Origin: Engraulis encrasicolus
Lineage: Eukaryota; Chordata; Actinopteri; Clupeiformes; Engraulidae
Reading direction: 5' to 3'
Assembly (NCBI RefSeq): GCF_034702125.1
Contig: NC_085869.1
Location: 56,092,841 to 56,156,840, forward strand
Length of the DNA stretch: 64,000 nucleotides
The position numbers were made by a program, and so were the translations under genes. Numbering within the stretch: position 1 is the first letter of the stretch; every line of letters starts with the position of its first letter. The notes below the pieces were generated by a model, which had not been told where the DNA came from, did no database searches, and was given only the letters and a program-made list of their open reading frames with translations. Positions 28,163 to 64,000 of this stretch are shown here, one piece after another.

Positions 28163-28769
28163 AGGTGGCAAAGCCACCGGCAACCCCATCTTGGTTTCAG
28201 TTGCATCTTGAGTTGTCAAAAGAACCTCTGTGAACTTGCTACCTTTGTTGTGATGAAATGACCGATGATACACCTCATTATAATGGTTATTAATGGTTGC
28301 ATTTTCAGAAGTGGTGAAAAAGCCAGCACCAGGTTGGTTTGAGAGTGATTGCACCTTGAGTTGTCTGAAGTACATGTTGTCCTCTGTCTGTCTGTTTGCT
28401 TCTTTGGATGCGGTAAATATACATATTGTAGTCTACATATTGTAGTTATCATTAGAAATAATTTAGAAATAATTACAAAATCATATCACCACCTAAACTT
28501 AGTAACCCTCTTGTGTGTAATGGCTGCATTTGCAGAAGTTGCAAAGCCATGTGCGACCCCAGGTTGGTTTGAAAATGTTTGCACCTTGAGGTCTCTAGGA
28601 CAAGTGTTGTCCTATGTCTCTCTGTCTGTTTGCTACTTTAGTTGTGGCAAATATTTGTCTACATATTTAGGTTAGCATATGAAAGCCTACTGTACACGTC
28701 TTTATAATGTTTGTTCATAGTTGCAATTATAGCAACTGTCTGAAGTGGCAACGCCACTAGCATCTAAAG
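28163..28769 (+). CDS. PEVK-like micro-exon unit 1 (partly decayed)
   Basis: First recognisable unit of array 1. Class a, 28163-28188 (EVAKPPATP), has lost its donor (CATCTT instead of a GT). Class b, 28309-28332, is a 24-nt version (EVVKKPAP) with intact sites. Class e, 28536-28562 (EVAKPCATP), is intact. Class f, 28743-28769, has lost its acceptor (CTG for CAG). Classes c and d are missing, apparently by deletion. The intact exons are phase 1-1 and each is followed by GTTGGTTTGAGA-like intron starts. The role is inferred: extensible, charged Pro-rich spring segment. Confidence 0.7.
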
Positions 28770-29039
28770 GTTGGTTTCTGAGTGTTGCACCTTGAGTTTA
28801 AATGGCTGTGTTTTAAAACACAAGTTGAACTCTGTCTGGTTGCTACTGTAAATGGATGCAGATATTTAAGCTAGTAAGCAAAGACAAAATAACACCCTAC
28901 ACTTAATGAGCTTCTCTTGTGTTAGTGAGCTTCTGTTATGTCTGAAAATGGTCTGTCAAAATTACGTCTACATACAGTATGTCAGTGACCATGACAACAT
29001 ACACGTCATTATAATACTTATTAATGGTTGCATTTTCAG

Positions 29040-30158
29040 AAGAGGTGAAGAAGCCAGCATCACCAGGTTGGTTTGAGAATGTTTGCACCTTGATTTGTCT
29101 GAAGTACATGTTGTCCTCTGTCTGTCTGTTTGCTTCTTTGGATGTGGTAAAGGAACAATCTACATATTGTTAATATAATTATTAATAACCACCAACACTC
29201 CATTATAATGTGGAAAATCTAATCACCACCTACACTTAGTCACCTTTTGTGCGTAATGGCTGCATTTACAGAGTTTGAAAAGCCACCCGGAACCCCAGCT
29301 CGGTTTGAGAGTGTTTTTCCCTTACGTTGTCTAAAGGACAAGTTGCACAGTATATGTAGACATTTTACTATGTGTGCTTGCTACTTCATTTGGCAAAAAT
29401 ATCCCATCTAGTTCATATTTAATGAATTACAAATCACCATCTACACTTAGTTAAATTGTGTTGTGTACTGGTTGCATTTTCAGAAGTGGTGAAGCCACCA
29501 GCAACCCCAGGTTGGTGTGAGTGTTTGCACCTTGGGTTGTCTTTGTTGATGAGTTGTCTGAAGTACCTGGTGTCCTCTGTCTGTCTGTTTGCTTCTTTGG
29601 TTGCTGTAAAGGTACAGTCTACATATTTTAGCTATAATTAGTAATATTATGCAAAATCATATCACAACCTATACTTCGTAACCTTCTTGTGTGTAATGGC
29701 TGCATTTGCAGAAGTTGCAAAGCCACGCACAACCCTGGGTTGGTTTGAGAATGTTTGCACCTTGTGGTCTCTAGGACAAGTTTTGGCCTCTGTCTCACTG
29801 TCTGTTTGCTACTGAAATTGTGGCAAATATTTGTCTACATAGTTTGGTTAGCACACGACAGCCTATTGTACACGTCTTTATAATGTTTGTTCATGGTTGT
29901 AATTGTCAGAAGTGGCAAAGCCACTGGGAACTAAATTTTGGTGTCTGAGTGTTGCACCTTGAGTTTAAATGGGCGTGTGTTTAAAAACACAAGTTGAACT
30001 GTATCTGGTTGCTACTCTAAATGGAGGCAGACATTTAAGTTAGTTAGCAAAGACAAAGAAAAACCCACACTTAGTGAACTTCTCTTGTGTTAGTGGGCTT
30101 CTCTTATGTGTGAAAAGGATTGCTTTTTCAGAAGTGAAAATGACACCTGCAACCCCAA
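29040..30158 (+). CDS. PEVK-like micro-exon unit 2
   Basis: Class b 29040-29066 (EEVKKPASP), d 29484-29510 (EVVKPPATP), e 29712-29738 (EVAKPRTTL) and a 30132-30158 (EVKMTPATP) have usable splice sites. Class c 29272-29298 has a dead donor (CAGCTCGG), and class f 29910-29936 has a dead donor (AAATTTTGG). Class a ends in A rather than G, so the codon it forms with the next exon is AAA (Lys) instead of GAA (Glu). Confidence 0.75.
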
Positions 30159-30305
30159 GTTGGTTTCAGAATGTTTGCATCTTGAGTTGTCAAAAGAACA
30201 TGTCTCCCTCTGTGAACTTGCTACCTTTGTTGTGACGAAATTACGTCTATATACAGTATGTCAGTGACCGTGACAACATACACGTCATTATAATGCTTAT
30301 TAATG

Positions 30306-32606: not shown

Positions 32607-32633
32607 AAGAGGTGAAGAAGCCAGCAACACCAG
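32607..32633 (+). CDS. PEVK-like micro-exon, class b (EEVKKPATP)
   Basis: A 27-nt exon with acceptor TTGCATTTTCAG and donor GTTGGT, identical in peptide to most class b exons of array 2. It is stranded between two large insertions: the CACTG element ends 15 bp upstream and the gypsy element starts 101 bp downstream. Its splice sites are untouched. Confidence 0.75.
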
Positions 32634-32734
32634 GTTGGTTTGAGAGTGTTTGCACCTTGAGTTGTCTGAATTACATATTGTTCTCTGTCTGTCTGTTTGC
32701 TTCTTTGGATGCAGTAAATGTAGGCCTATGTCTA

Positions 32735-33400
32735 TGTAACCCTTTGAAGCGCACTCCCGCGTTCGCCTGCCGGCTCTGGCACCTCTGCTCGCCCTCTGCG
32801 TTGTGTTACTGTTGTTAGTGGTGGCGGACAGGAGGCACAGTCGGTTGGGGAAAACACTCAGACGGACACGGAAGGGGTTCGGGATCGATGGGTTGGTTTT
32901 AATGATGAATTCAAGAGGGTTAACAGGATCTATAGGGTTGATTGACAAGACTCGCATCAGTTTTCAAACGCTAAAAACACGTTACTGTAAGATGCTAACA
33001 CATTTTCATACAAACTCCCATTGACGTTAGCATTCATTTTCATTCATACTGGATCGTTAAAAATACAAAAAAATACAAGCGCTACATTCACAAATCACTC
33101 AGCTTCTAAGAGCTTAATATTCCAACATATAAAGTAGCTCAACAAAACAAACTTTCAATGGTTCATATTTCACGTATTTCATACTTTAGATCTGAGGAAA
33201 AAGTTTGTTGCTTACCTATAGGGTTGATTGACAAGACTAAGGGAAATGGCGAACGAACTACAAACAAGTGTCAACCCTACGGGAAAACAGAAGGGCCAAA
33301 AGGCGATTCCAAAATATAAAACTCCTAGCGAAACATTGTCAAACAGCGACACCTAGTGGCGCAGCTTTAACACCAACATACACTTACTCAATACCTTACA
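32735..33400 (-). repeat. 3' LTR of the gypsy element
   Basis: 666 bp, begins TGTAACCC and ends CCTTACA on the plus strand. It differs from the other LTR at about two positions (for example GTGTTA versus GGGTTA near the start and AACAAAC versus AACGAAC further in), implying a recent insertion. Confidence 0.93.
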
Positions 33401-33415
33401 TCCACCCCTTCTTTA
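33401..33415 (-). other. Polypurine tract of the gypsy element
   Basis: On the minus strand TAAAGAAGGGGTGGA directly abuts the 3' LTR, as expected for the plus-strand primer of a retroelement. Confidence 0.75.
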
Positions 33416-33636
33416 AGAGATGGCGTCCTCGACATCAGATTCAACCAAACCTACATGCAGCATAGGCGTACTCAAAGGGGTTTAGACAAACAAACAAAAA
33501 AAAGAATTTTAAAATAGGAAACAAGTGTGTGGTGTGAGGTGAGGTGTGGTGTGTGATGCATGTAGCATAAAGTGTAAGGATATAAGGTAGGTGTACATGG
33601 GGATATTCTTCATCTAGGGGTTTGCACTAAACTGTC

Positions 33637-36311
33637 CTAGGTGTATCCAGCTGCTCTTTTAGCTTTGGCTTTTTGCCACAATTTTTTTCCTCTCTCTATC
33701 TTCTCTTGGTCACTCTCAGTTTCCACGACATGAGACTGGTACGACAGTTTCAGGGGGGGGCGTCGACTCCTTCTTGGGTACCTCCTTGGGGTGTTGGCTG
33801 TTTCAGGGGAGGTGGCCTCACTGGTCACTGGGGTATCTGCCCGTGCTTCCACATTGCCCTGCTCTTCACTGAGCTGTTCCTCCTCGTCTGTCTCAGTGGT
33901 CACACCAGCTTCTACTTCTTCCATACTGCCATTCTCCATTTCCTCTTCCCTGTCGGTCCCACATGGCTCACTGTCTGATTGGCCCTCCTCCAAGGTCACT
34001 CTGCTGCTTCGGTCCACCGGGAGGAACATGCACTGGGTAAGGAGGTTTCTGTGAAGAACTCTCTCAGGACCTCCACTCTCAGGGCGCACTACGTAGACAG
34101 GTAAGTTGGGCTGCTTCTTCACAACAAGGTATGGGCGTGACTCCCACCGGTCTCCCAACTTCTGCCTCCCCTCCACATGGCAAACTTTGACTAAGACTCT
34201 GTCCCCAGGGTCAAAGTCTTCACTCTTGGCTTTTCGGTCATAGTACCTTTTCTGTTGCTCCTTGGCATGCTGGGATGTCTGGTTGGCCAGGGCATAGGCC
34301 TGTGTCAGGGAATCATGTAGTGTCTGGACATAGTCACTGTACTCGCAGGGCTGATTAACAGGCGAGGACTTAAAGAGCAGGTCAACAGGCAGTCTTGGAT
34401 GTCTACCAAACATCAGGTAGTACGGGCTATACCCTGTGGAGTCGTGTTGTGAGCAGTTATATGCATGGGTCATGGCATCCAGATGTTCGTGCCAACGGGG
34501 CTTCAGGTGAGGTTCTAATGTTCCAAGCATGTTCATAAGGGTGCGGTTGAACCTTTCAGTGGTCCCATTGCCCTGAGGATGGTAAGGTGTTGTATGTGTT
34601 TTAGTGATGCCAGTACACTTGCACAATTCCTTCACAATGGCGCTTTCAAAGTTGCGCCCCTGGTCTGCATGCAGCTTTGCTGGGAAACCGAACCGGCAGA
34701 GGAAGTTTTTCCACAGTACTTTAGCCACGGTGCCTGCCTTTTGGTCTTTGGTGGGGTAGGCCTGCGCGTACCGGGAAAAATGGTCAGTGACAACGAGAAC
34801 ATTTTCCAGGCCACCTTTAGACTTCTCAAGTGTCAAAAAGTCAACACAGACTAGTTCCATGGGGGCACTTGTGTGGATACTGACCAGGGGCGCCTTGACA
34901 TTGGCTGTGGGGGTCTTCCTCAGGCAGCACCGCATGCACTTTTCACACCAGGCTTTCACTTCTTGGAACATTCTCGGCCAGTAGAATCTCTCCCATATCA
35001 TCTTCTGTGTTCTTTCGAATCCCAAGTGTCCTGAGTCGTCATGAAGGGCAGTCTTAACAGCTTCCTGCAGCCTCTCTGGAAGTACTAGCTGTTCCACTTC
35101 TCTATGGCAGTCCCGGACCCGGCGGTACATGATACCGTTGCGTACCACTAACCTCCTCCACTCTTTTAAGAGAAGGTGTCCACTTGCGCACACCTCCATC
35201 CTTTCACCACGGTTTGGTTTCCGGTTTCGGGATTTAAAGTGTAGGACTGGGCCGATGACTGGGTCTTCTCTTTGAGCTGCTCGGACCTCTTGCGTTGTCA
35301 TGGCGGGTAGAACCTCCATTCCCACCTCTGCATATGGCTCACTTGACTCTGGCAGCTGACTGCTCTCTCCCTGTGGATATGGCTCACTTGACTCTGGTAG
35401 CTGACGGTTCTCTCGCTCCTCTGTCACAGCGGCGGTCTCCACCGAAGGCTCCTCCACTTCCGGGGTGACTTTTGACTCATCTCGCCTCCGTTCACTGCGG
35501 GTCACTCGCTGAGGACAGGTCTGCAGGATCTCCACGACTTCTTGGTGGGACAAGCGTGAGAGGGCGTCAGCATTGGAATTGTCTTGTCCCCTCCTGTACT
35601 GGATGTCAAAGTCATAGATGGACAGGTGAGAGACCCATCTCTGGCCGGTGGCATCCAGCTTGGCTGTGGACATGACATACTTTAGAGGATTGTTGTCAGT
35701 GAGAACGGAGAACTTGCGCCCATAGAGGTGGTCATGGAACTTGTCTGTGACTGCCCACTTAAGGGCGAGGAACTCCAGCTTGTGTGCGGGATACCTCGTC
35801 TCAGGAGGGGTCAAGCCTCTGCTGGCATACGCGATGACTCTTTCTTTTCCACCCTGGATCTGTGCAAGCACAGCACCGAGCCCCTCTCTAGATGCGTCAG
35901 TCTGTAGCAAGAACGGTAGGCTGTAGTCCGGATAGCCCAGCACTGGCGCGTTGGTCAGCTTCTCTTTCAGTGCCTGGAAAGCCTCCTCACAGTCAGCGGT
36001 CCACAGGAATGGTTTGTCGGGGCAGGAACTTTTCTTGGCCCCTCTCCTCTTCATTCTGGGGTCTCCTGAGGTGAGGCGGTACAAGGGAGCAGCCAGACTG
36101 GAGTAAGACTTCACGTACCGTCTGTAGTAGCCAGCAAACCCTAGAAACTGGAGTACTTCTTTTCGATCGGTTGGTCGCGGCCAATCCTTCACCCTGCTGA
36201 TCTTCTCTGGGTCTGTCCTGATGCCGTGTGCCGACACCAGGTGGCCAAGGTAGTTCACTTCCTCCCGAACAAACTGGCACTTTGAGGGCTTAAGCTTCAG
36301 GCCATGCTGTC
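33637..36311 (-). CDS. Gypsy pol, C-terminal part: RT connection, RNase H, integrase
   Basis: An open frame of about 890 codons up to the break. It starts in the region after the RT palm (NYLGHLVS), followed by RNase H (LLQTDASREG, VLTDNNPLKY), then the integrase zinc finger (H and H before CEKCMRC) and the catalytic DDE core (VCVDFL, HADQGRNFES, PQGNGTTERFNRTL). A C-terminal domain (DRVLVKV, ESRPYLVV) and an acidic Ser/Glu-rich tail of about 110 residues follow. The frame is otherwise intact to its stop at 33637. The upstream half is separated from it by an inserted element, so the gene is broken. Confidence 0.9.
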
Positions 36312-36313
36312 TA

Positions 36314-37025
36314 AAGGGGGATTCATACTAGTCGTGAGTGGTGCTAGTCTCCTTCATACTTCACTCACGACGATGGCGCGCGCCGTCACGTGACCTAAAA
36401 TTTCGACACGCCCCCCGTCGTAAGCTCAAAATTCGGCGCGTGTCGCCACGTCGTGCACACGAGGATTTTTCTAACTTGTCGTGCGCCACCAGCGACCACG
36501 CAGATAGGCAGACAAAGCAGGAGTTGCGAAGAGAGGCTACAACTACTGTAGGCTACCACAGAATGGATCCTGCATCATTTTGAGGATAATAAAATGTCAG
36601 AGAGTTATTTTATCTTCTCTCTTAAATGTTGTTCAGTGAAACAATTGTTTACTTTGTTCAGAAGCACGTTGTGTTCGGCGATCTATTTATAAATTCTGCC
36701 GCCAGAACAATGCTCTCACATGGTCTTGGAATTATCTGGCAATGTAGGCTACAACAAAAAATATATGTTTCAATGTGGTAAGTCACAAGTCAGACGTTCA
36801 GTAGCCCTACAGCAGCCGTGTTTGGCTTTCTATTTTATACATCAGTAGAACTCACGCTGCGAGTTGCGAAAAATACTGCCGTTTCTCTCATGAACAGCAG
36901 AGGGCACTTCCGACAATGCGAGCAAGGCGCTTTTGAAGTATGAATAGTCTGTCGCAAGTGATGACGTCATTAATGGTTCTCGCGCCACTCGCGACAAAGT
37001 GCGCACGTGAAGTATGCAGAGCCCT
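36314..37025. mobile_element. 712-bp inverted-repeat element inside gypsy pol
   Basis: Terminal repeats AAGGGGGATTCATACTAGTC and, inverted from the other end, AGGGCTCTGCATACTTCACG. The flanks are a TA duplication (36312-36313 and 37026-37027). Length plus TA is a multiple of three, and pol has the same frame on both sides. The internal sequence has no transposase. TA targets suit Tc1/mariner-type or related elements; the exact family is not clear. It must be younger than the retrotransposon it interrupts. Confidence 0.75.
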
Positions 37026-37027
37026 TA

Positions 37028-38709
37028 AGTCTGTCGAAGACCCTTTGCAGTCTTTCTAGATGTTCATCAAAGGAAGAGGAAAAAATGATCAAATCATCTA
37101 AGTAAATGAGCAGCTGTGTGAAGTTCAAGTCACCGAAGCAGCAGGTCATCAGCCTTTGGAAGGTGGAGGGAGCGTTTTGGAGGCCAAACGGCATTCTATT
37201 AGCCTCAAAAAGACCCATGGGAGTGCTGAATGCGGTCTTGTGCTTATCATGTTCTGCAACTTCCACCTGCCAGTACCCGGACGTAAGGTCTAGTGTGGAA
37301 AAGTACTTAGCTTGCCCCAATGACTCCAGGGCCTCCTCAATCCTGGGCAGGGGGAACGCATCCCTGGTGCTGCAGGAATTGAGCCTCCTGTAATCAATAC
37401 ACAGCCTCAACGACCCATCCTTCTTGGTCACGACCACCACTGGGGAGGCATATGGGCTTTTACTGGGACGGATGACCCCTGCTACCTCCATCTCCGTCAG
37501 CATCTGGCGCACGTCTTGGAACTGAGATGGGGGTATCTTCCGGTACGGCAGTCGAAAGGGCCTGGGGTCCACCAGTGGAATCTCATGCTGGATGGTTGTG
37601 GTGTGACCATAGTCCAGGGAATGCTGAGAAAACACATCTGCATTCTTGTCCAGCAGCTCTTGGAGGCAGGTGCGCTGGTCTTCATTCTCCACCGCTGCTC
37701 CGCTAACATCCACTCCACAGCGCGTCACCACCTGGCCCAGACTAAGACATACCCCTCCATTGCCAGCTGCACACCGATCGTTCTCAGGGAACTCCAACAC
37801 GCTTCTTACCAGGACTGCATTTGCCAGGTGAGTATGGGGCTTGATAGTTATGGCGCGCTGGGAGAGATTCATGACTCTGACGGGAGCACACCCTCTCTGC
37901 ACATCGGCAAGGACTTTGGCAACTAGGAGGTCTTGGGGAAGACGAACTGAGGCCTGGCTCTCGATCAGGGCAGTGTATGACTTTCTTCGGGGCCCAGCTT
38001 GAATCTTGCACCTCAAATCCATCTCTTTCCCTGCAGGTATACGCACTTTGCGGCCGGTGTACACAGCAGGCCCTATCCACTCATGCGTCTCGCTTTGCTC
38101 AGCGCTCTCCACCTTCAGCAACGCTGTGTACCACTCCGGGTGCTTCTCTTTCATCAGGTGTAGGAACTGCTGGCCATAGGACGCTTGGAGGTGGCTGCGG
38201 GAGGCCCGAATGACATTGGTGCCGACAAGAAGAGGGACTGAAGAGCGGTAGTCAGAGTCAGGGACAACAAAAGTAGGCACGGCTTTATGTTCTTTCCCAA
38301 GAACATTCAGGTCAATGTGCACGACACCATGGTGAGGAACTGCCTGGCCTGCTGCACCTTCGATGGAGAACTTGGATGGCTTTAACCGCATCCCCTTTAG
38401 AGCAGGGTGGCTCCGCCAGAAGCTGTGGGTGACACTGGTTATCTGAGAGCCCGAGTCAATGAGGGCCTTGCACTTCACACCATTAACTATTACCTCCCCC
38501 TCATTATTAGGCCCGACTATTGGCGTGCCGTGGTCTCCAGTGTCGCTTCTTGATGTTGAGTGGGGCTCTTGCTGGAGGCCCATGGTTGCCCCGGCGACCA
38601 CAGGCTTCATGCGTTTAAAGTCTGGGCAGATTGGGGTGTGGGCTTCTCCACAGGGGTGGTGGGTTGGGGTGCCCCAGCGGGGCTGAGAGGGGGAAGCACA
38701 GCTCGACAA
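37028..38709 (-). CDS. Gypsy pol, N-terminal part: protease and reverse transcriptase
   Basis: The open frame overlaps the end of gag by about 100 bp and lies in the -1 frame relative to it, so Pol is probably made by ribosomal frameshifting. The aspartic protease motif ALIDSGSQITS is at about residue 83. Reverse transcriptase follows, with LCIDYRRLN, MPFGLQNAP and the catalytic YLDD at about residue 536. The frame is cut by the inserted element at 37025, after which only a few foreign codons precede a stop. Confidence 0.9.
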
Positions 38710-40370: not shown

Positions 40371-40845
40371 AGAGCAAATGAAATGTCATAGAACTTTAAG
40401 ATAAAAGTGAATGTGTGTGTGCCAACAAAAATGAAAAACCCCTATTGGTAATTAACTAGAATAAATACCAGTAGAGTAGGCAATTATAACAGACCTATTA
40501 AATATGTCTAAAGAGACTAAATTAAAGTATCTTGTCTATTCACTGCAGCATTCAATTTAAAGGGTAATTAAATATCAGTTAGCTACAGGCACAACAGTAT
40601 ATAAAACCCCAAAACCATCAAATATCATTAAAAGATCATCATGTCACTCAGAATTACTGAAAATACACAGAAAAATCATCAACTTGCAATATAAAAAATG
40701 TAGATTCATAAACTCTTTAAATAATATAAAGGGATGAAGATCAAGAAATCACTGGAAAAGTCCATTTATCAGATAAACAGTTCAATGGTCAATATCCGAT
40801 ACCGGTATGATAAACGATAACGTCCTCAGAAATCCAACTTCACCA

Positions 40846-40863
40846 TCCACGGGCACGGCACCA
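40846..40863 (-). other. Primer-binding site of the gypsy element
   Basis: Two bases inside the 5' LTR, the minus strand reads TGGTGCCGTGCCCGTGG. The first ten bases fit the 3' end of a histidine tRNA as I recall it; the match beyond that is poor, so the primer tRNA is tentative. Confidence 0.5.
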
Positions 40864-40865
40864 TA

Positions 40866-41531
40866 TGTAACCCTTTGAAGCGCACTCCCGCGTTCGCCTG
40901 CCGGCTCTGGCACCTCTGCTCGCCCTCTGCGTTGGGTTACTGTTGTTAGTGGTGGCGGACAGGAGGCACAGTCGGTTGGGGAAAACACTCAGACGGACAC
41001 GGAAGGGGTTCGGGATCGATGGGTTGGTTTTAATGATGAATTCAAGAGGGTTAACAGGATCTATAGGGTTGATTGACAAGACTCGCATCAGTTTTCAAAC
41101 GCTAAAAACACGTTACTGTAAGATGCTAACACATTTTCATACAAACTCCCATTGACGTTAGCATTCATTTTCATTCATACTGGATCGTTAAAAATACAAA
41201 AAAATACAAGCGCTACATTCACAAATCACTCAGCTTCTAAGAGCTTAATATTCCAACATATAAAGTAGCTCAACAAAACGAACTTTCAATGGTTCATATT
41301 TCACGTATTTCATACTTTAGATCTGAGGAAAAAGTTTGTTGCTTACCTATAGGGTTGATTGACAAGACTAAGGGAAATGGCGAACGAACTACAAACAAGT
41401 GTCAACCCTACGGGAAAACAGAAGGGCCAAAAGGCGATTCCAAAATATAAAACTCCTAGCGAAACATTGTCAAACAGCGACACCTAGTGGCGCAGCTTTA
41501 ACACCAACATACACTTACTCAATACCTTACA
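40866..41531 (-). repeat. 5' LTR of the gypsy element
   Basis: 666 bp, the same length as the 3' LTR and about 99.7% identical to it by eye. It carries the promoter for the minus-strand element, although no TATA box could be placed with confidence. Confidence 0.93.
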
Positions 41532-41644
41532 TCTACATTTTGTTAATATAATTATTAATAAACACCAACACTCCATAATAATGTGGAAAATCTAATCACC
41601 ACCTACACTTAGTCACCTTTTGTGCGTAATGGCTGCATTTACAG

Positions 41645-49105: not shown

Positions 49106-49132
49106 AACCGAAACAGTGCGCTGGACCTCCAG
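49106..49132 (+). CDS. Linker micro-exon EPKQCAGPP
   Basis: A 27-nt exon with acceptor TTTTTTCTTCTTCTTCAG and donor GTTGGT. It encodes EPKQCAGPP. Both the exon and the first 80 bp of its intron closely match 47333, so linker and Ig exons were duplicated together. Confidence 0.75.
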
Positions 49133-49412: not shown

Positions 49413-49697
49413 AACCTGCTCACTTTGTTACCAAACTGAAGGATGTCACCTTCACTTCCAACCAGAAGCTCTATTTGGAGTGCACTTTCACTGGATCTCC
49501 TAAGATGTTTGTCACCTGGTACAAGGATGGAAAGCAGCTCTACGCCTCCTACCGCTTCAACACCAAACTCATTGGCAATAGATGCATCGTGGAAGGACTG
49601 TATGAGTGTGGCAAGGACACCCCTGGAGTTTATGCTTGTGAAGTCAGCAATACACACGGAACCGAGATCTGCAAAGCAAATGTGTCTGTGAAAATGG
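49413..49697 (+). CDS. Exon encoding Ig domain 7
   Basis: A 285-nt exon (95 aa) with acceptor TTGTCTCTTTCCAG and donor GTCAGT. It encodes EPAHFVTKLKDV to ANVSVKM. It is nearly identical to Ig domain 6 except in the SNTHGTEIC loop. It is the last Ig domain before the second micro-exon array. Confidence 0.9.
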
Positions 49698-53065: not shown

Positions 53066-54707
53066 AGGTGACAAAGCCACCCACATCCCCAAGTTGGTTT
53101 CAGAGTGTTTGCATCTTGAGTTGTCAAAAGAACATGTTTCCCTATGTGACCTTGCTACCTTTGTTGTGACTAAATGACATCTAAATACAGAGTATACTAG
53201 TGACCATGACTACATACATGTACATGTCATTATAATGGTTATTAATGGTTTCATTTTCAGAAGAGGTGAAGAATCCAGCAACACCAGGTTAGTTTGAGAG
53301 TGTTTGCACCTTGAGTTGTCTGAAGTACCTGTTGTCCTCTGTCTGTCTGTTTGCTTCTTTGGTTGCGGTAAAGGTGCAGTCTACATATTTTAGTTATCTT
53401 AAAACCACCATTAATCCATAATAATGTGCTAAATCAAATCACCTACACTTAGTCACCTTTGTGTGTAATGGCTGCATTTGCAGAAGTAGCAAAGCCACCC
53501 GCAACCCCTTGTCGGTTTGAAAGTGTCTTTCCTTCACGGTCTAAAGGACATGTTGCACAGTATATGTAGTTTTACTATGTGTGCTTGCTACTTCATTTGT
53601 CGAACATATCCATATCCGTATTTAATGAATTACAAATCACCACCTACCCTTAGTAATGTTGTGTTGTGTAATGGTTGGATTTCCAGAAGTGGTGAAGGAA
53701 GCAGCAATCCCAGGTTGGTTTGAGATTGCTTGCACCTTGATTTCTCTGAAGGACATGTTGTACATTAAATGTACAACACACGTTTTATTCTATGTGCCTG
53801 CTACTTCAATTAGGGAGAACATCACTTCTAGATAGATATGTAAGGGATAACGGTCGACGAGGTGACTGATTCCAAAAAGTTAATGGCGAGGCGGCGGCTC
53901 TGAACTCTGGCGACGTGCCCAGCACTGAGACAGAGTTGCCTCCTCCAAACCATTAACTTTGTGGAACCGGTCGACCTTGAAGGCCGTCATCCTGCTTATC
54001 TGTTATTAAAGGTAGGGTACAATTTTAATTTGATTACTGTCTGTAAAGTTGTAGGAACCATGCCAACTGCACTAGCATCTTGTAAGCAAGATAGACACAT
54101 CCATAATCTGGAGTTTGAACGTTTTACTATGTGTGTTTGCCACGTCATTTGGCTAAAATATCCCTTCCAGTTCATATTTAATGAATTGCAAATCACTATC
54201 TACCCTGAGTTAAATTGTGTTGTGTAATGGTTGCATTTTCAAAAGTGGTGAAGCCACCAGCAACCCCAGGTTGGTTTGAAAGTGTTTGCACCTTGGGTTG
54301 TCTTTGTTGTTGAGTTGTCTGAAGTACCTGGTGTCCTCTGTCAGTTAGTTTGCTTCTTTGGTTGCGGTAAAGGTACAGTCTACATATTTTAGTTAGAATT
54401 AGTAATAATATCCAAAATCATATCACAACCTAAACTTATTAATCTTCTTGAGTGTAATGGCTGCATTTCCAGAAGTTGCAAATCCATGCGCAACTCCAGG
54501 TTGGTTTGAGAATGTTTGCACCTTGTGGTCTCTAGGACAAGTGTTGTCTTCTGTCTCTCTGTCTGTTTGCTACTTAAGTTGTGGCAAACATTTGTCTTCA
54601 TATTTTGATTAGCACATGACAGCCTACATTATACGTCTTTATAATGTTTGTTCATAGTTGCAATTGTTGCAATTGGCATAATGTGGCAACGCCACTAGCA
54701 ACTAAAG
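53066..54707 (+). CDS. PEVK-like micro-exon unit 4 (start of array 2)
   Basis: Intact: a 53066-53092 (EVTKPPTSP), b 53261-53287 (EEVKNPATP, donor GTTAGT), c 53484-53510 (EVAKPPATP, weak donor GTCGGT), d' 53687-53713 (EVVKEAAIP) and e 54473-54499 (EVANPCATP). Dead: d 54243-54269 (acceptor CAA) and f 54680-54707 (acceptor CAT plus an extra base). The d' class, with KEAA in place of KPPA, occurs only here and in unit 5. It is followed by a hairpin insert (53849-53994). Confidence 0.78.
53849..53994. repeat. Hairpin insert in the intron after exon d', copy 1
   Basis: GGTCGACGAGG and AAAAAGTTAATGG on the left are matched in inverse by CCATTAACTTTGTGG and CCGGTCGACC on the right. The loop is GC-rich. 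A second copy lies at 56028-56166 in the next unit, so the insert was present before that duplication. Confidence 0.65.
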
Positions 54708-54895
54708 GTTGGTGTCTGAGTGTTGCACCTTCAGTTTAAATGGCTGTGTGTTTAAACACAAGTTGAACTCTGTCTGGTTGCTACATGGGTACAGACATTT
54801 AAGTTAGTGAGCAAAGACAAATAACACCCCACACATAGTGACCTGCTCTTGTGTTAGTGAGCTTCTTTTGTGTGTGGAAATGGTTGCATTTTCAG

Positions 54896-56807
54896 AAGTG
54901 ACGAAGCCACCCACATCCCCAAGTTGGTTTCAGAATGTTTGCATCTTGAGTTGTCAAAAGAACATGTTTCCCTCTGTGAACTTGCTACCTTTGTTTGTGA
55001 CGAAATTATGTCTGCATAAAGTATATTAGTGACCATGACAACATGTACATGTAATTTTAATGGTTATTAATGGTTGCATTTTCAGAAGAGGTGAAGAAGC
55101 CAGCAACACCAGGTTGGTTTTCATAGTGTTTGCACCTTGATTTTTCTGAAGTACACATTGTCCTTTGTCTGTCTGTTTGCTTCTTTGGTTGCGGTAAAGG
55201 TACAGTCTACATATTTTGTTATCTTATAACCACCAACACTCCATGATACTGCGCAAAATCAAATCACCACCTACTCTTAGTCACCTTTCTGTGTAATGGC
55301 TGCATTTGTAGAAGTTGCAAAGCCACCCGCAACCCCAGGTCTAAAGGACTTGTTGCACAGTACATGTAGCTGTTTTACTACTGTATGTGTGCTTTCTACT
55401 TCATTTGACTAAAATATCCCTTTTAGTTCATATTTAATGAACTACAAATCACTATCTACCCTTAGTTAAATTGTGTCGTGTATTTGTTGCATTTCCAGAA
55501 GTGGTGAAGCCACCAGCAACCCCAGGTTGGTGTGAGAGTGTTTGCACCTTGGGTTGTCATTGTTGATGAGTTGTCTGAAGTACCTGGTGTCCTCTGTCTG
55601 TCTATTTGCGTCTTTGGTTGCTGTAAAAGTACAGTCTACATGTTTTAGTTATAATTTGTAATAATATGCAAAATCACATCACAACCTAAGCTTAGTAATC
55701 TTCTTGCGTGTAATGACATTTTACTATGTGTGCTTGAATGATGTTTTACTTTGTGTGCTTGCTACTTCATTTGGCAAAAATATCCCTTCTAGTTCATATT
55801 TAATGAATTACAAATCACCACCTATACTTAGTAACGTTGTGTTGTCTAATGGTTGCATTTCCAGAAGTGGTGAAGGAAGCAGCTACCCCAGGTTGGTTTG
55901 AGATTGCTTGCACCTTGATTTTTCTAAAGGACATGTTGTACAGTAAATTTGCGACACACGTTTTACTCAATGGGCCTGCTATTTCAATTAGGGAGAACAT
56001 GACTTCTAGATAGATATGTAAGGGATAACGGTCAACGAGGTGACTGATTCCAAAAAGTGAATGGGGAAGTGGCGGCTCTGAACTCTGGCGACGTGCCCAG
56101 CACTGAGACAGAGTTGCCTCCTCCAAACCATTAACTTTGTGGAACCGGTCGACCTTGAAGGCCGTCATCCCAGCAACTGCACCAGCATCTTGTAAGCAAG
56201 ATAAAAACATCCATAATCTGGAGTTTGAACGTTTTACTATGTGTGTTTGCCACGTCATTTGGCTAAAATATCCCTTCTAGTTCATATTTAATGAATTGTA
56301 AATCACTATCTACCCTTAGTTAAATTGTGTTGTGCAATGGTTGCATTTTCAGAAGTGGTGAAGCCACCAGCAACCCCAGGTTGGTGTGAGAGTGTTTGCA
56401 CCTTGTCTTTGTTGTTGAGTTGTCTGAAGTACCTGGTGTCCTCTATCTGTTTGCTTCTTTGGTTGCGGTAAAGGTCTACATTATTTTAGTTATAATTAGT
56501 AATAATAGGCAAAAACATATCACAACCTAAACTTAGTAATCTTCTTGAGTTAATGGCTGCATTTGCAGAAGTTGCAAAGCCATGCGCAACTCCAGGTTGG
56601 TTTGAGAATGGTTGCACCTTGTGGTCTCTAAGACAAGTATTGTCTTCTGTCTCTCTGTCTGTTTGCTACTTAAGTTGTGTCAAACATTTGTCTACATATT
56701 TTGATTAGCATATGACAGCCTACGTTATACAGTACGTCTTAAAGATTTTTGTTCATGGTTGCAATTGTTGCAATTGGCACAAGTGGCAACGCCACTAGCA
56801 ACTAAAA
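54896..56807 (+). CDS. PEVK-like micro-exon unit 5 (extended)
   Basis: Intact: a 54896-54922 (EVTKPPTSP), b 55086-55112 (EEVKKPATP), c 55312-55338 (EVAKPPATP, donor GTCTAA after a deletion), d 55499-55525 (EVVKPPATP), d' 55865-55891 (EVVKEAATP), a second d 56353-56379 (EVVKPPATP) and e 56569-56595 (EVAKPCATP). Dead: f 56781-56807 (acceptor CAC). The first class e copy of this unit was removed by a deletion near 55715. This unit gives the largest number of usable exons of any unit. Confidence 0.8.
56028..56166. repeat. Hairpin insert, copy 2
   Basis: About 95% identical by eye to 53849-53994, but the left GTCGAC has become GTCAAC and the stem is slightly eroded. It follows exon d' in the same position as in unit 4. 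Confidence 0.65.
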
Positions 56808-56997
56808 GTTGGTGTCTGAGTGTTGCACCTTGAGTTTAAATGGCTGTGTGTTTTAAAACACAAACTGAACTCTGTCTGGTTGCTACATGGATGCAGACAT
56901 TTAAGTTAGTGAGCTAAGACAAATAACAAACCATACATAGAGACCTTCTCTTGTGTTAATGAGCTTCGTTTGTGTGTGGAAATGATTGCATTTTCAG

Positions 56998-58095
56998 AAG
57001 TGACACAGCCACCCTCATCCCCAAGTTGGTTTCAGAATGTATGCGTCTTGAGTTGTCAAAGGAACATGTTTCTCTCTGTGAACTTGCTACCTTTGTTGTG
57101 ACGAAATAATGTCTACATACAATATATTAGTGACCAGGACAACATATACATATGCACATGTCATTATAATGGTTATTAATGGTTGCATTTTCAGAAGAGG
57201 TGAAGAAGCCAGCAGCACCAGGTTGGTTTGATAGTGTTTGCACCTTGAGTTGTCTGGAGTAGACGTTGTCCTTTGTCTGTCTGTTTGATTCTTTGGTTGC
57301 GGTAAAGGTACAGTCTCCATATTTCGTTATCTTATAAACACCAACACTCCATAATATTGTGCATAATCAAATCACCACCTACTCTTAGTCACCTTTGTGT
57401 GTAATGGCTGCATTTGTAAAAGTTACAAAGCCACCCGCAACCCCAGTTCGGTTTGAGAGTGTCTTTTCCTGACGTTGTCTAAAGGACATGTTGCACAGTA
57501 TATGTAGACGTTTTACTATATGTGCTTTCTACTTCATTTGACTGAAATATCCCTTTTAGTTTATATTTAATGAATTACAAATCACTACCTACCCGTAGTT
57601 ACGTTGCGTTGTGTAATGGTTGCATTTCCAGAAGTGGTGATGCCACCAGCAACCCCAGGTTGGTCTGAGAGTTTTTGCACCTTGGGTTGTCATTGTTGTT
57701 GAGTTGTCTGAAGTACCTGGTGTCCTCTGTCTGTCTGTTTGCTTCTTTGGTTGCTGTTAAAGTGCAGTCTACATATTTTAGTTATACTTAGTTATAATGT
57801 GCAAAATCATATCACAACCTAAACTTAGTAATGTTCTTGTGTGTAATGGCTGCATTTGCAGAAGTTGCAAAGCCATGCACAACTCCAGGTTGGTTTGAGA
57901 ATGTTTGCACCTCGTGGTCTCTAGGACAAGTGTTGTCTTCTGTCTCTCCGTCTGTTTGCTACTTAAGTTGTGGCAAACATTTGTCTACATATTTTAATTA
58001 GCACATGACAGCCTACGTTATACGTCTTGATAATGTTTGTTCATGGTTGGAATTCTTGCAATTGGCATTAGTGGCAACGCCACTAGCAACTAAAG
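56998..58095 (+). CDS. PEVK-like micro-exon unit 6
   Basis: Intact: a 56998-57024 (EVTQPPSSP), b 57195-57221 (EEVKKPAAP), d 57632-57658 (EVVMPPATP), e 57862-57888 (EVAKPCTTP) and f 58072-58095 (24 nt, VATPLATK). In f the ancestral acceptor is gone, but a T created TTAG three bases downstream, giving a shorter exon in the same phase. Dead: c 57420-57446 (acceptor TAAA). It forms the first half of a two-unit block that is repeated in units 8-9. Confidence 0.8.
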
Positions 58096-58284
58096 GTTGG
58101 TGTCTGAGTGTTGCACCTTGAGTTTAAATGGCTGTGTGTTTTAAAACACAAGTTGAATTCTGTCTGGTTGCTACATGGATGCAGACATTAAGTTAATAAG
58201 CAAAGACAAATAGCAACCCATACATAGTGACCTTCTCTTGTGTTAGTGAGCTTCGTTTGTGTGTGGAAATGATTGCATTTTCAG

Positions 58285-59383
58285 AAGTGACACAGCCACC
58301 CTCATCCCCAAGTTGGTTTCAGAATGTATGCGTCTTGAGTTGTCAAAGGAACATGTTTCTCTCTGTGAACTTGCTACCTTTGTTGTGACGAAATAATGTC
58401 TACATACAATATATTAGTGACCAGGACAACATATACATATGCACATGTCATTATAATTGTTATTAATGGTTGCATTTTCAGAAGAGGTGAAGAAGCCAGC
58501 AACACCAGGTTGGTTTTCATAGTATTTGCACCTTGAGTTGTCTGAAGTAGACGTTGTCCTTTGTCTGTCTGTTTGCTTCTTTGGTTGCGGTAAAGGTACA
58601 GTCTCCATATTTTGTTATCTTATAAACACCAACACTCCATAATATTGTGCATAATCAAATCACCACCTACTCTTAGTCACCTTTGTGTGTAATGACTGCA
58701 TTTGTAGAAGTTGCAAAGCCAACCGCGACCCCAGTTCCGTTTGAGAGTGTCTTTTCCTGACGTTGTCTAAAGGACATGTTGCACAGTATATGTAGACATT
58801 TTACAATGCTTGCTTCCTACTTCATTTGACTAAAATATCCCTTTTAGTTCATATTAAATGAATTACAAATCACTACCTGCCCTTAGTTACATTGTGTTGT
58901 GTAATGGTTGCAATTGTAGAAGTGATGAAGCCACCAGCAACCCCAGATTGGTTTGAAAGTGCTTGCGCCTTCGGTTGTCTTTGTTGTTGAGTTGTCTGAA
59001 GGACCTCTTGTCCTCTCTCTGTCTGTTTGCTTCTTTGGTTGCGGTAAAGGTACAGTCTACACATTTTAATTATAATTAGTTATAATGTGCAAAATCAAAT
59101 TACAACCTAAACTTAGTAACATTCTTGTGTTTAATGGCTGCATTTCAAAAAGTTGCAAAGCCACGCGCAACCCCAGGTTGGTTTGGGAATGTTTGCACCT
59201 TGAAGTGTCTATGACAGGTGTTGTCCTCTGTCTCTCTGTCTGTTTGCTACTTTAGTTGTGGTAAATATTTGTCTACATATTTTGGTTAGCACATGACAGC
59301 CTATGGTACACATCTTGATAATGTTTGTTCATAGTTGCAATTGTCGCGATTGTCAGAAGTGGCAAAGCCACTAGCAACTAAAG
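58285..59383 (+). CDS. PEVK-like micro-exon unit 7
   Basis: Intact: a 58285-58311 (EVTQPPSSP), b 58482-58508 (EEVKKPATP) and f 59357-59383 (EVAKPLATK). Dead: c 58708-58734 (CAGTTCCG: the only GT would leave a 26-nt, frame-breaking exon), d 58920-58946 (EVMKPPATP, donor AT for GT) and e 59150-59176 (acceptor CAAA). Half of this unit's exons are unusable. Confidence 0.75.
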
Positions 59384-59570
59384 GTTGGTGTCTGAGTGTT
59401 GCACCTTGAGTTTAAATGGGTGCGTTTTTTAATACACAAGTTGAACTCTGACTGGTTGCTACATGGATGCAGACATTTAAGTTAGTAAAGAAAGACAAAT
59501 AACTACCCACGCTTAGTGACCTTCTCTTGTGTTAGTGAGCTATTGTCTGTGGAAATGGTTGCATATTCAG

Positions 59571-61487
59571 AAGTGACAAAGCCACCCACATCCTCAAGTT
59601 GGTTTCAGAATGTTTGCATCTTGACTTGTCAAAAGAACTCCCTCTGTGAAATTACTACGTTTGTTGTGACGAAATGATGTCTACATAAACTATATTAGTG
59701 ACCATGACAACATGTACATGTCATTATATTGGTTAATAATCGTTGCATTTTCAGAAGAGGTGAAGAAGCCAGCAACACCAGGTTGGTTTTCATAGTATTT
59801 GCACCTTGAGTTGTCAGAAGCAGGGCTTTGAACCGTTATTTTTTTCCAAACGTTCCGTTCCGAACAGAAACGGAATTATAACGTTTCCGGTTTTGAGTTC
59901 CACCAATAAATTGACGTTCCCGAACCGGTTAGAACCAAAAAATATTGTTCCCGGAACGGTTAATTTCGTTCCTGTCAGCTGATTACTCCCAATAGGCCTA
60001 ACTGACGTTAACCAAGAAAGACGGAAGTGCAAAACAGTCAGCCTACATTCAAAACTGCTTATTCAAGCGGATGAAAAGAATATCCTCCAGAATTTTGTCA
60101 TTCAGGGACGACCTAAGCGGAGAAGCAGAGAATAAACCTCAATTATGAAAATGTACGCTGACTTGGGTCACGGGGAGCACTACTGTATGATGGACATTGT
60201 GAGTTTGTGCATATTTGAAGCGGCCATGGATGCCCAATAACGCCGAAACATTGTCGGTGCGCTTTACACGCGCTTCCCTGCAATGTCTTACAATAATGCA
60301 ATGCAAACTCTGTCCTTTTTTATGACAGTGGTTTCTCTTAATAAAGATGTGGAGTGAAGACTTTGTAATCTACAGCTCTCTCTCCATTCAGTCAGAGAAT
60401 GTCTGATGTCACACAAGACGTGAACCTCAGCCGTCATGGTAACGTGCGCAGGAAAATAATTACTTTTTTTTTAGTTTAAGGAACGATATTAACCGGTATT
60501 AACCGGTTACCATTATTTTTAAATAAGTGTTCCCGTTCCAGAACATAAAAAATAATAACGTTTCCGGTTTCGTTTCTGTTCCCTGTAAAATACAAAAAGT
60601 TCCTGGTTTTCGTTTTCGTTCCTTGAACCGGTTCGAAGCCCTGGTCTGAAGTACTCGTTGTCCTTTGTCTGTCTGTTGGCTTCTTTGGTTGCGGTAAAGG
60701 TACAGTCTCCATATTTTGTTATCTTATAAACACCAACCCTCCATAATATTGTGCATAATCAAATCACCACCTACTCTTAGTCACCTTTGTGTGTAATGGC
60801 TGCATTTGTAAAAGTTGCAAAGCCACCTGCAACCCCAGTTCGGTTTGAGAGTGTATTTTCCTGACGTTGTCTAAAAGACATGTTGCACAGTATATGTAGA
60901 CGTTTTACTATATGTGCTTTCTACTTCATTTGACTGAAATATCCCTTTTAGTTTATATTTAATGAATTACAAATCACTACCTACCCTTAGTTACGTTGCG
61001 TTGTGTAATGGTTGCATTTCCAGAAGTGGTGATGCCACCAGCAACCCCAGGTTGGTGTGAAAGTTTTTGCACCTTGGGTTGTCATTGTTGTTGAGTTGTC
61101 TGAAGTACCTGGTGTCCTCTGTCTGTCTGTTTGCTTCTTTGGTTGCTGTTGAAGTGCAGTCTACATATTTTAGTTATAATTAGTAATGATATGCAAAATC
61201 ATATCACAACCTAAACTTAGTAATGTTCTTGTGTGTAATGGCTGCATTTGCAGAAGTTTCAAAGCCATGCACAACTCCAGGTTGGTTTGAGAATGTTTGC
61301 ACCTTGTGGTCTCTAGGACAAGTGTTGTCTTCTGTCTCTCTGTCTGTTTGCTACTTAAGTTTTGGCAAACATTTCTCTACATATTTTGATTAGCACATGA
61401 CAGCCTACGGTATACGTCTTTATAATTTTTGTTCATGGTTGGAATTCTTGCAATTGGCATTAGTGGCAACGCCACTAGCAACTAAAG
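59571..61487 (+). CDS. PEVK-like micro-exon unit 8, containing a hAT insertion
   Basis: Intact: a 59571-59597 (EVTKPPTSS), b 59755-59781 (EEVKKPATP), d 61024-61050 (EVVMPPATP), e 61254-61280 (EVSKPCTTP) and f 61464-61487 (24-nt form VATPLATK with the same shifted acceptor as unit 6). Dead: c 60812-60838 (acceptor TAAA, as in unit 6). From class b onward this unit is the duplicate of unit 6. Confidence 0.8.
59821..60643. mobile_element. hAT-type non-autonomous transposon, 823 bp
   Basis: Termini CAGGGCTTTGAACCG and CGGTTCGAAGCCCTG are inverted. The 8-bp target duplication is GTCAGAAG (59813-59820) and GTCTGAAG (60644-60651), with one mismatch. The sibling unit at 58482-58708 lacks it and shows the empty site. 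Internal GGAACGG / CCGTTCC motifs are repeated. There is no transposase. Confidence 0.85.
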
Positions 61488-61676
61488 GTTGGTGTCTGAG
61501 TGTTGCACCTTGAGTTTAAATGGCTGTGTGTTTTAAAACACAAGTTGAACTCTGTCTGGTTGCTACATGGATGCAGACATTAAGTTAGTAAGCAAAGACA
61601 AATAACAACCCATACATAGTGACCTTCTCTTGAGTTAGTGAACTTCGTTTATGTGTGGAAATGATTGCATTTTCAG

Positions 61677-62768
61677 AAGTGACAAAGCCACCCTCATCCC
61701 CAAGTTGGTTTCAGAATGTATGCGTCTTGAGTTGTCAAAGGAACATGTTTCTCTCTGTGAACTTGCTACCTTTGTTGTGACGAAATAATGTCTTCATACA
61801 ATATATTAGTGACCAGGACAACATATGCACATGTCATTATAATGGCTATTAATGGTTGCATTTTCAGAAGAGGTGAAGAAGCCAGCAACACCAGGTTGGT
61901 TTGATAGTATTTGCACCTTGAGTTGTCTGAAGTAGACGTTGTCCTTTGTCTGTCTGTTTGCTTCTTTGGTTGCGGTAAAGGTACAGTCTCCATATTTTGT
62001 TATCTTATAAACACCAACACTCCATAATATTGTGCATAATCAAATCACCACCTACTCTTAGTCACCTTTGTGTGTAATGGCTGCATTTGTAGAAGTTGCA
62101 AAGCCAACCGCAACCCCAGTTCCGTTTGAGAGTGTCTTTTCCTGACGTTGTCTAAAGGACATGTTGCAGAGTATATGTAGACATTTTACAATGCTTGCTT
62201 CCTACTTCATTTGACTAAAATATCCCTTTTAGTTCATATTAAATGAATTACAAATCACTACCTGCCCTTAGTTACATTGTGTTGTGTAATGGTTGCATTT
62301 GTAGAAGTGATGAAGCCACCAGCAACCCCAGGTCGGTTTGAAAGTGCTTGCGCCTTCGGTTGTCTTTGTTGTTGAGTTGTCTGAAGGACCTCTTGTCCTC
62401 TCTCTGTCTGTTTGCTTCTTTGGTTGCAGTAAAGGTACAGTCTACACATTTTAGTTATACTTAGTTATAATGTGCAAAATCATATTACAACCTAAACTTA
62501 GTAACCTTCTTGTGTTTATTGGTTTCATTTGAAAAAGTTGCAAAGCCACGCGCAACCCCTTGTTGGTTTGGGAATGTTTGCACCTTGAAGTGTCTAGGAC
62601 AGGTGTTGTCCTCTGTCTCTCTGTCTGTTTGCTACTTTTGTTGTGGTAAATATTTGTCTACATATTTTGGTTGGCACATGACAATCTACGGTACACGTCT
62701 TGATAATGTTTGTTCATAGTTGCAATTGTCGCGATTGTCAGAAGTGGCAAAGCCACTAGCAACTAAAG
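61677..62768 (+). CDS. PEVK-like micro-exon unit 9
   Basis: Intact: a 61677-61703 (EVTKPPSSP), b 61868-61894 (EEVKKPATP), d 62305-62331 (EVMKPPATP, donor GTCGGT) and f 62742-62768 (EVAKPLATK). Dead: c 62093-62119 (CAGTTCCG) and e 62535-62561 (acceptor GAAA). It is the duplicate of unit 7, except that its class d donor is a GT whereas unit 7 has AT. Confidence 0.78.
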
Positions 62769-62957
62769 GTTGGTGTCTGAGTGTTGCACCTTGAGTTTAA
62801 ATGGGTGCGTTTTTTAATACACAAGTTGAACTCTCTCTGGTTGCTACATGGATGCAGACATTAAGTTAGTAAGCAAAGACAAATAACAACCCATCCATAG
62901 TGACCTTCTCTTGTGTTGGTGAGCTTCTATTGTCTGTGGAAATTGTTGCATATTCAG

Positions 62958-63840
62958 AAGTGACAAAGCCACCCACACCCTCAAGTTGGTTTCAGAATGT
63001 TTGCATCTTGACTTGTCAAAAGAACATGTCTCCCTCTGTGAACTTGCTACGTTTGTTGTGACGAAATGATGTCTACATAAACTATATTAGTGACCATGAC
63101 AACATGTACATGTCATTATATTGGTTAATAATCGTTGCATTTTCAGAAGAGGTGAAGAAGCCAGCGACACCAGGTTGGTTTTCATAGTATTTGCACCTTG
63201 AGTTGTCTGAAGTACTCGTTGTCCTTTTTCTGTCTGTTTGCTTCTTTGGTTGCGGTAAAGGTGCGGTCTAAATATTTTGTTATCTTATAACCACCAACAC
63301 TCCATAATATTGTGCAAAATCAAATCACCACCTACTCTTAGTCACATTTGTGTGTAATGGCTGCATTTGTAGAAGTTGCAAAGCCACCTGCAACCCCAGA
63401 TCGGTTTGAGAGTTTCTTTTCTTGACGTTGTCTAAAGGACATGTTGCACAGTATATGTAGACGTTTTACTAGGTGTGCTTTCTTCTTCATTTGACTAAAG
63501 TATCCCTTTAGTTCATATTTAATGAATTACAAATCATTACCTACCCTTAGTTAAATTGTGTTGTGTAATGGTTGCATTTCCAGAAGTGGTGAAGCCACCA
63601 GCAACCCCTGGTTGGTGTGAGAGTGTTTGCACTTTGGGTTGTCTTTGTTGTTGAGTTGTGTGAAGGACCTGGTGTCCTCTCTATGTCTGTTTGCTTCTTT
63701 GGTTGCGGTAAACGTACAGTCTACATATTTTAGTTATGATTAGTTATAATGTGCAAAATCAAATTACAACCTAAACTTAGTAACCTTCTTGTGTTTAATG
63801 GCTGCATTTGAAAAAGTTGCAAAGCCACGCGCAACCCCAG
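62958..63840 (+). CDS. PEVK-like micro-exon unit 10 (runs to the window end)
   Basis: Intact: a 62958-62984 (EVTKPPTPS), b 63147-63173 (EEVKKPATP) and d 63584-63610 (EVVKPPATP). Dead: c 63373-63399 (donor AT for GT) and e 63814-63840 (acceptor GAAA). The final bases of the window match the intron that leads to class f, so the array continues beyond 64000. Confidence 0.78.
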
Positions 63841-64000
63841 GTTGGTTTGGGAATGTTTGCACCTTGAAGTGTCTATGATAGGTGTTGTTCTCTGTCTCTC
63901 TCTCTGTTTGCTACTTTAGTTGTGGTAAATATTTGTCTACATATTTTGGTTAGCACATGACAGCCTACGGTACACGTCTTGATAATGTTTGTTCATAGTT

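What the first reader, a model, noticed from the sequence alone, without database searches (positions are those of the whole stretch)
28163..64000. A titin-like gene with arrays of 9-residue PEVK micro-exons
About 59 copies of a 27-nt (sometimes 24-nt) phase 1-1 exon are spread over two arrays. Each encodes a 9-residue module made of P, E, V, K, A and T, and 41 of them have usable splice sites in one common phase. Titin PEVK exons are also symmetric phase 1-1, but are known to be around 28 residues. A spring built from dozens of 9-aa exons would be a different architecture, with very fine length control by exon skipping. The exon boundaries are seen in the sequence. The spring role is inference from composition and the neighbouring Ig domains.
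Basis: partly seen in the sequence, partly recalled or inferred. Interest (0 to 1): 0.88.

Follow-up and report, generated by a model that had tools for sequence, protein, structure and literature searches.

The report
Nine-residue spring micro-exons in titin-like gene
A stretch of a likely fish titin-like muscle gene carries 62 aligned copies of a tiny 27-base exon-like unit, each spelling about nine spring-type amino acids, of which 41 could still be joined in frame at about that size; they are predicted to be spliced in or out to tune the protein's elasticity, but no RNA was available to show that any is used.

Summary
A profile finds 66 copies of a micro-exon unit. Of 62 I anchored, 42 keep AG and GT and 41 join in one phase (1-1) without a stop; 8 of the other 20 keep a possible 24-nt form. 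A composition filter finds 35 such exons on the + strand of 28163-64000, none on the - strand or in 1-28162, and 0.43 on average in random sequence. New here: six subfamilies (A-F) in a ~1.28 kb higher-order repeat, a young Ty3/gypsy-type element splitting array 1, four divergent solitary micro-exons near Ig exons, and a nearly dead subfamily (B). The seven Ig exons are one class, the titin Ig that in medaka directly precedes domains collinear with titin structure 3B43, so 'titin-like' is supported. No N2A or 26-28-residue PEVK exon was recognised. Slow exon change shows in A and C only and is modest after correcting for choosing them. No protein with the arrays was found within the search's length limits. 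Best reading: a PEVK-like cassette array among titin tandem-Ig exons; use in mRNA and a spring role are inferred.

The parts
5610..5891 (+). Ig exon 1 (I-set), donor G|GTTAGT; acceptor and start phase not resolved
25009..25287 (+). Ig exon 2, phase 1-1
25603..25881 (+). Ig exon 3, phase 1-1
26554..26838 (+). Ig exon 4, phase 1-1
27003..27029 (+). solitary micro-exon EPKKTPQSG, strong splice sites
   Evidence: weak profile hit E=0.01
28164..30158 (+). array 1, first part: subfamilies F, A, D, E, A, B, C, D, E, F
32607..32633 (+). array 1 micro-exon A (EEVKKPATP), just before the retrotransposon
41645..42112 (+). array 1, part after the retrotransposon: B, C, D (a partial E follows at about 42.29 kb)
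45391..45417 (+). solitary micro-exon EHKKPSGPA before Ig exon 5
45626..45910 (+). Ig exon 5, phase 1-1
47333..47359 (+). solitary micro-exon EPKKCTGPP before Ig exon 6
47634..47918 (+). Ig exon 6, phase 1-1
49106..49132 (+). solitary micro-exon EPKQCAGPP before Ig exon 7
49413..49697 (+). Ig exon 7, phase 1-1
53066..64000 (+). array 2: higher-order repeat of micro-exon subfamilies A-F (plus C'), about 1.28 kb per six exons, running off the window
57252..63212 (+). youngest duplication in array 2 (57252-59820 vs 60644-63212, 96.35% identical)
32733..41536 (-). Ty3/gypsy-type LTR element inserted in array 1 between a micro-exon A and a B; LTRs 99.55% identical over 673 bp. Not part of the exon system

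Best explanation
This is part of a likely fish titin-like I-band gene in which arrays of 27-base, phase 1-1, PEVK-type exon-like units lie among repeated copies of one titin Ig exon, and the intact units would be spliced as optional cassettes that each add nine likely disordered, spring-like residues. Shown: the Ig class and its link to titin, the exon-sized units, their common phase with the Ig exons, donor sites as strong as those of the Ig exons in most intact copies, the ordered A-F higher-order repeat, and its growth by tandem duplication. Inferred: that the units are exons in mRNA, that combinations vary by skipping (Ig-Ig, Ig-micro and micro-micro joins keep frame, barring the copies that end in T), and that the product is an extra entropic spring. 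Subfamilies A and C and the four solitary copies are the likeliest working exons; B is carried along as a nearly dead passenger.
For: 35 vs 0.43 expected, none on the - strand or in 1-28162 by the same filter. Donor scores: A, C and D median 80.1, solitary 83.6, vs 78.5 for five of seven Ig exons; only 3.4% of 4486 window GT sites reach 78 (frequency table recalled). The four solitary copies keep 27 nt, phase, composition and good splice sites. Ig6/Ig7 exons differ at 23 of 285 sites vs 65 of 296 intron sites, p=2.7e-6, so the Ig part is under constraint. A+C exons: 10 of 378 sites vs 585 of 7235 intron sites, p=2e-5; parsimony 10 changes in 54 columns vs 181 in 279, p=5e-6; no shifted placement of 126 is as low for A+C. 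Donor flank (+1 to +8) 12 of 322 vs 585 of 7235, p=0.003. Ig class: 82-102 bits for the matching complete domains in titin-like P0030 and medaka P0033, at most 59.4 for any domain outside the class in the 11 proteins listed. In P0033 the next three domains align collinearly to titin 3B43.
Against: No RNA or protein evidence for any micro-exon. A search with a 261-residue joined array gave only 2 hits, at E=0.1 and 0.7. Of 62 anchored copies, 20 lack the AG/GT form and 12 of these have no 24-nt form either; one more makes a stop. D+F exons change as fast as introns (34 of 378 vs 585 of 7235, p=0.5), B+E likewise (24 of 345, p=0.54). A and C were chosen; if the two slowest of six subfamilies are taken at every shift, 9 of 126 shifts are as slow. 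By parsimony C alone gives p=0.07, and A owes part of its p to a high intron rate (0.93) that may reflect misalignment; the donor flank of C is not slow there (5 changes in 8 columns). The acceptor flank is not slower than introns (60 of 841). Between subfamilies the downstream intron looks about as conserved as the exon. F donors are weak (68.2). Related tandem Ig models in Alosa and Fundulus (P0031, P0030) show no nine-residue PEVK-like insert between Ig domains.
Confidence: 0.55

Rival explanations
1. The arrays are mostly neutral intronic higher-order repeats. They were seeded from one or a few real micro-exons and then amplified by unequal crossing-over; most copies are skipped and only the solitary copies, if any, are used.
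For: B is dead in 8 of 9 copies (7 lack AG or GT, one makes a stop) yet is copied along, and E keeps the 27-nt form in 2 of 8. D, F, B and E exons evolve at about intron rate. Flanks look as conserved as exons between subfamilies. The youngest duplication is 96.35% identical.
Against: A keeps AG and GT in 10 of 10 copies and changes about three times more slowly than introns, C similarly. Donors of A, C and D match those of the Ig exons. Half or more of the E copies keep a 24-nt form (6 of 8 with either form).
Confidence: 0.33
2. This is the ordinary PEVK segment of a fish titin, and short PEVK exons are simply normal there.
For: Composition and symmetric phase fit PEVK. Short exons are commonly missed by annotation, and the tested minimum lengths for human and mouse PEVK exons began at 10, just below the shortest known (units not clear in the passages; PMC6469411), so a single short PEVK exon may not be unusual.
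Against: The units lie between repeated copies of a middle-Ig-type domain. A scan of 1-28200 and 42300-53100 for 15-120 nt exons found no PEVK exon longer than 27 nt at its thresholds. The PPAK motif is 26-28 residues (PMC9100103, passages). The fish papers seen (PMC12241362, parts 1-2 of 5 and passages; PMC4720518, passages) mention no 9-residue unit.
Confidence: 0.08
3. The unit is a dispersed repeat or a non-coding RNA gene, not an exon.
For: The conserved core reaches about 40 nt beyond the exon.
Against: No Rfam family reaches its gathering score in the window. No unit hit at E<1e-4 lies before 28 kb or on the - strand. Four diverged copies keep frame and splice sites near Ig exons. Dispersal in the rest of the genome could not be tested (genome search not answered).
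Confidence: 0.04

Closest known systems
Vertebrate titin PEVK segment (PPAK and poly-E exons)
   Same: P/E/V/K/A-rich product, many tandem exon copies, tissue-specific splicing, and exon duplication thought to be linked to retroelements (PMC12241362, PMC6469411, PMC9100103: passages seen); symmetric phase is recalled
   Different: 9 rather than 26-28 residues per unit; lies among repeated Ig exons of one class; arranged as a six-exon higher-order repeat with dead members
Titin middle tandem-Ig segment (6-Ig and 10-Ig super-repeats, PMC12241362)
   Same: One Ig per exon, symmetric phase here; the Ig class sits directly before domains collinear with titin 3B43 in medaka
   Different: A single Ig class occurs seven times here (exons 2-7 form one clade, support 0.999) rather than whole super-repeats, and PEVK-type micro-exons intervene
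Schistosome micro-exon genes (MEGs)
   Same: Tandem symmetric exons of 6-36 bp thought to generate variants by alternative splicing (PMC3961193, passages)
   Different: Unrelated genes and proteins; here one repeated 9-residue module inside a giant muscle gene

Membership tests
titin (gene) | I-band Ig domains of a recognisable titin class | tested here: met
titin (gene) | one Ig domain per exon with equal phases | tested here: met
   6 of 7 Ig exons have phase 1-1; Ig1 start unresolved
titin (gene) | Z-disc, Fn3 A-band, kinase and M-band parts in the same gene | not testable with these tools
   window too short; the genome search not answered
titin PEVK segment | PEVK(+A) ratio of at least 0.54 (PEVK_Finder threshold, PMC6469411) | tested here: met
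   42 of 42 intact exons; 0.77 over their 377-residue join
titin PEVK segment | PPAK units of 26-28 residues | tested here: not met
   9 residues per unit, 8 in one; PMC9100103
titin PEVK segment | position between N2A and the distal Ig segment | tested here: inconclusive
   only one middle-Ig-type class seen among the arrays; no N2A identified
micro-exon cassette system (as in MEGs) | tandem symmetric exons of 6-36 bp | tested here: met
   41 joinable exon-like units of 24-27 nt
micro-exon cassette system (as in MEGs) | micro-exons present in mRNA | not testable with these tools
   no transcript data

The most novel reading that the evidence does not exclude
A vertebrate titin has evolved a second, digital spring: dozens of 9-residue micro-exons inside its tandem-Ig region that add or remove contour length in steps of about 3.4 nm (9 x 0.38 nm, recalled), grown by a self-propagating six-exon repeat.
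Probability: 0.35. Interest if true: 0.85.

Novelty: new variant of a known kind. Interest (0 to 1): 0.6.

Why it matters
If the exons are used, spring length in a sarcomeric titin could be tuned in steps about a third the size of a PPAK unit, and the locus would show exon birth, amplification and death caught in the act. Ig copies of several ages, dead and living micro-exon subfamilies and a young retrotransposon in one place make it a test bed for how modular elastic proteins grow.

Tried and rejected
Neurofascin or another cell-adhesion gene: PDB hits include neurofascin and contactins, but titin leads (the leading titin chain has six Ig domains, and its best single domain scores only 43 bits for Ig1). 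The one 'neurofascin-like' relative (P0031) is four tandem domains of this same class. RNA gene: no Rfam match at gathering score. Longer PEVK exons in 1-28200 and 42300-53100: none at the thresholds used; the only other candidate was a 24-nt one at 19370, not pursued. Other titin Ig classes in the window: none found with the five relatives and one profile used. Relatives in viral and prokaryote contigs: none. Origin of the micro-exon acceptor from the Ig acceptor: only a 28-base match upstream of Ig6, E=0.001, left open. Literature searches for such exons (listings, of which one search found 0 papers) showed none in the titles and abstracts listed; passages were read in five papers. Most subscription papers are not held. 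A search for tropoelastin small exons gave 0 papers, so I make no claim on elastin. My hand anchors for two decayed copies (28164 by about one base, 29914 by several) were off; neither has a donor at the homologous place, so the 42 and 41 stand, but E counts are slightly affected.
Full report
What is there. The window encodes seven I-set Ig exons on the + strand (two of the seven were scanned against Pfam). Six of them begin and end in phase 1; the start of Ig1 is unresolved. Among them lie copies of a short exon-like unit: acceptor (typically TTGCATTTTCAG), 27 nt, donor (typically GTTGGT). A profile search with a second round finds 69 hits at E<1, all on the + strand, and 66 at E<1e-4. I anchored 62 (58 in arrays, 4 solitary). 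AG and GT are both present in 42 of 62; one of these gives a stop at its junction, so 41 can be joined. Of the other 20, 8 keep a 24-nt form and 12 keep none. In 42 of 62 copies the acceptor is a tandem NAGNAG, which could give 9- or 8-residue versions; none of the 4 solitary copies has it. The filter used for the chance test (27 nt, at least 7 of 9 residues P/E/V/K/A/T) gives 35 in 28163-64000 on the + strand, 0 in 1-28162, 0 on the whole - strand, and a mean of 0.43 (maximum 3) in 200 Markov-1 sequences.

Order. The copies fall into subfamilies that mostly follow each other as A-B-C-D-E-F, with about 1.28 kb per round. Typical products are A EEVKKPATP (KEVKKPATP after an F), B EVAKPPATP, C EVVKPPATP, D EVAKPCATP, E EVAKPLATK and F EVTKPPTSP. 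Array 2 (53.0 kb to the window end) holds several rounds. Its youngest duplication, 57252-59820 vs 60644-63212, is 96.35% identical; arrays 1 and 2 are about 80-88% alike in the larger matches. Array 1 is split by an LTR element at 32733-41536 with 99.55% identical LTRs; two of its three long - strand frames hold reverse transcriptase, RNase H, integrase and a weak protease match, the third none. Four solitary, more divergent micro-exons (27003, 45391, 47333, 49106) lie after Ig4 and before Ig5, Ig6 and Ig7.

Which gene. A search with a joined Ig and micro-exon product (487 residues; only the 7991 candidates sharing most words were scored) gave 99 proteins, led by P0030-P0033. A profile of the window Ig domains scores 86.5, 90.3 and 81.6 bits on three complete domains, and 62.3 on a fourth, cut domain, of a protein its source calls titin-like [Fundulus diaphanus] (P0030). 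It scores 102 on one domain of a medaka protein (P0033), and 59.4 or less on every domain outside this class in the 11 proteins listed. In P0033 the three domains that follow align collinearly with the first half of titin structure 3B43 (307 bits; more weakly, 192 bits, with its second half). An Alosa protein (P0031, named neurofascin-like by its source) is four domains of the same class in tandem. Window Ig exons 2-7 are one clade among the 42 domains compared (0.999), so the Ig expansion looks like this lineage's own. The species is unknown; the nearest named relatives are teleosts. The Ig exons are under constraint (Ig6/Ig7 23 of 285 vs intron 65 of 296, p=2.7e-6).

Are the micro-exons working exons? 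For: donors as strong as those of the Ig exons in A, C, D and the solitary copies; conserved donor flank (12 of 322 vs 585 of 7235, p=0.003); slow exons in A (4 of 162) and C (6 of 216) against introns (585 of 7235). Against: B is nearly all broken and E keeps its 27-nt form in 2 of 8; D (19 of 216) and F (15 of 162) evolve like introns, and the acceptor flank is not slow (60 of 841). The one solitary pair that could be compared differs at 2 of 27 sites vs 65 of 296 in its introns, p=0.08. I pooled A with C. With A+C fixed, none of 126 shifted placements is as slow; when the two slowest of six subfamilies are chosen at each shift, 9 of 126 are. By parsimony C alone gives p=0.07, and the high intron rate of A (0.93) may include misalignment. 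The aligned pairs overlap in part, so p-values are optimistic. The A and C exon changes are too few for a synonymous test (10 in all). No transcript could be consulted. The protein search with 29 joined array exons gave no significant hit, but it sees only proteins of 0.55-1.75 times the query length, so full titins were out of reach.

Mechanism. The exons here start and end in phase 1 (Ig1 start apart), so subsets can be joined without a frameshift. With composition near PPAK (P 26%, K 16%, V 13%, E 12%, T 12%, A 11%) the product should be a disordered, slightly basic linker. I infer that intact copies are optional cassettes that lengthen a titin I-band region by nine residues each, and that unequal exchange between ~1.28 kb rounds changes copy number. 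The loss of the 27-nt form in 20 of 62 copies fits weak selection on any single unit.

Comparison. The PPAK motif has 26-28 residues (PMC9100103, passages). Elephant shark connectin has 300 exons, with PEVK segments of 372-424 residues in heart and 634-774 in skeletal muscle (PMC12241362, parts 1-2 of 5 and passages). Zebrafish ttna resembles human titin, and ttnb has shortened middle-Ig and PEVK regions (PMC4720518, passages). PEVK_Finder tested minimum exon lengths from 10 upwards, chosen just below the shortest human and mouse PEVK exons; the unit is not clear in the passages (PMC6469411), so single short PEVK exons may already be known. None of these passages mentions an array of 9-residue exons. 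Architecturally the nearest case found is the schistosome micro-exon gene: tandem symmetric exons of 6-36 bp (PMC3961193, passages). I call this a new variant of a known kind.

A recount added the 24-nt forms, which softened my earlier wording on subfamily E, and the limits on A and C by parsimony were added.

Noticed in passing
32733-41536: Young Ty3/gypsy-type LTR element (LTRs 673 bp, 99.55% identical) on the - strand, inserted in the intron between a micro-exon A and a B of array 1.
   Followed up: partly
59820-60644: About 0.8 kb of extra DNA in one A-B interval of array 2 (spacing 1057 instead of about 226); absent from the six other A-B intervals of array 2. Likely a mobile-element insertion.
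   Followed up: no
first bases of 42 of 62 micro-exon copies: Tandem NAGNAG acceptors (mostly CAGAAG), which could give 27- or 24-nt versions of the same exon.
   Followed up: partly
P0030 523-775, P0031 1-375: The same titin Ig class is also tandemly repeated in a Fundulus and an Alosa protein, without nine-residue inserts, so this Ig position may be a duplication hot spot in teleost titin.
   Followed up: partly
999-1174, 2894-3119, 21843-21929, 27407-27572: Long CA/GT microsatellites (88, 113, 43 and about 83 repeats).
   Followed up: no
array units, about +27 to +65 of each micro-exon: A conserved downstream intron stretch (GTTGGTTTGAGAGTGTTTGCACCTTGAGTTGTC) looks as constant between subfamilies as the exon; it could be a splicing enhancer or just shared ancestry.
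   Followed up: partly
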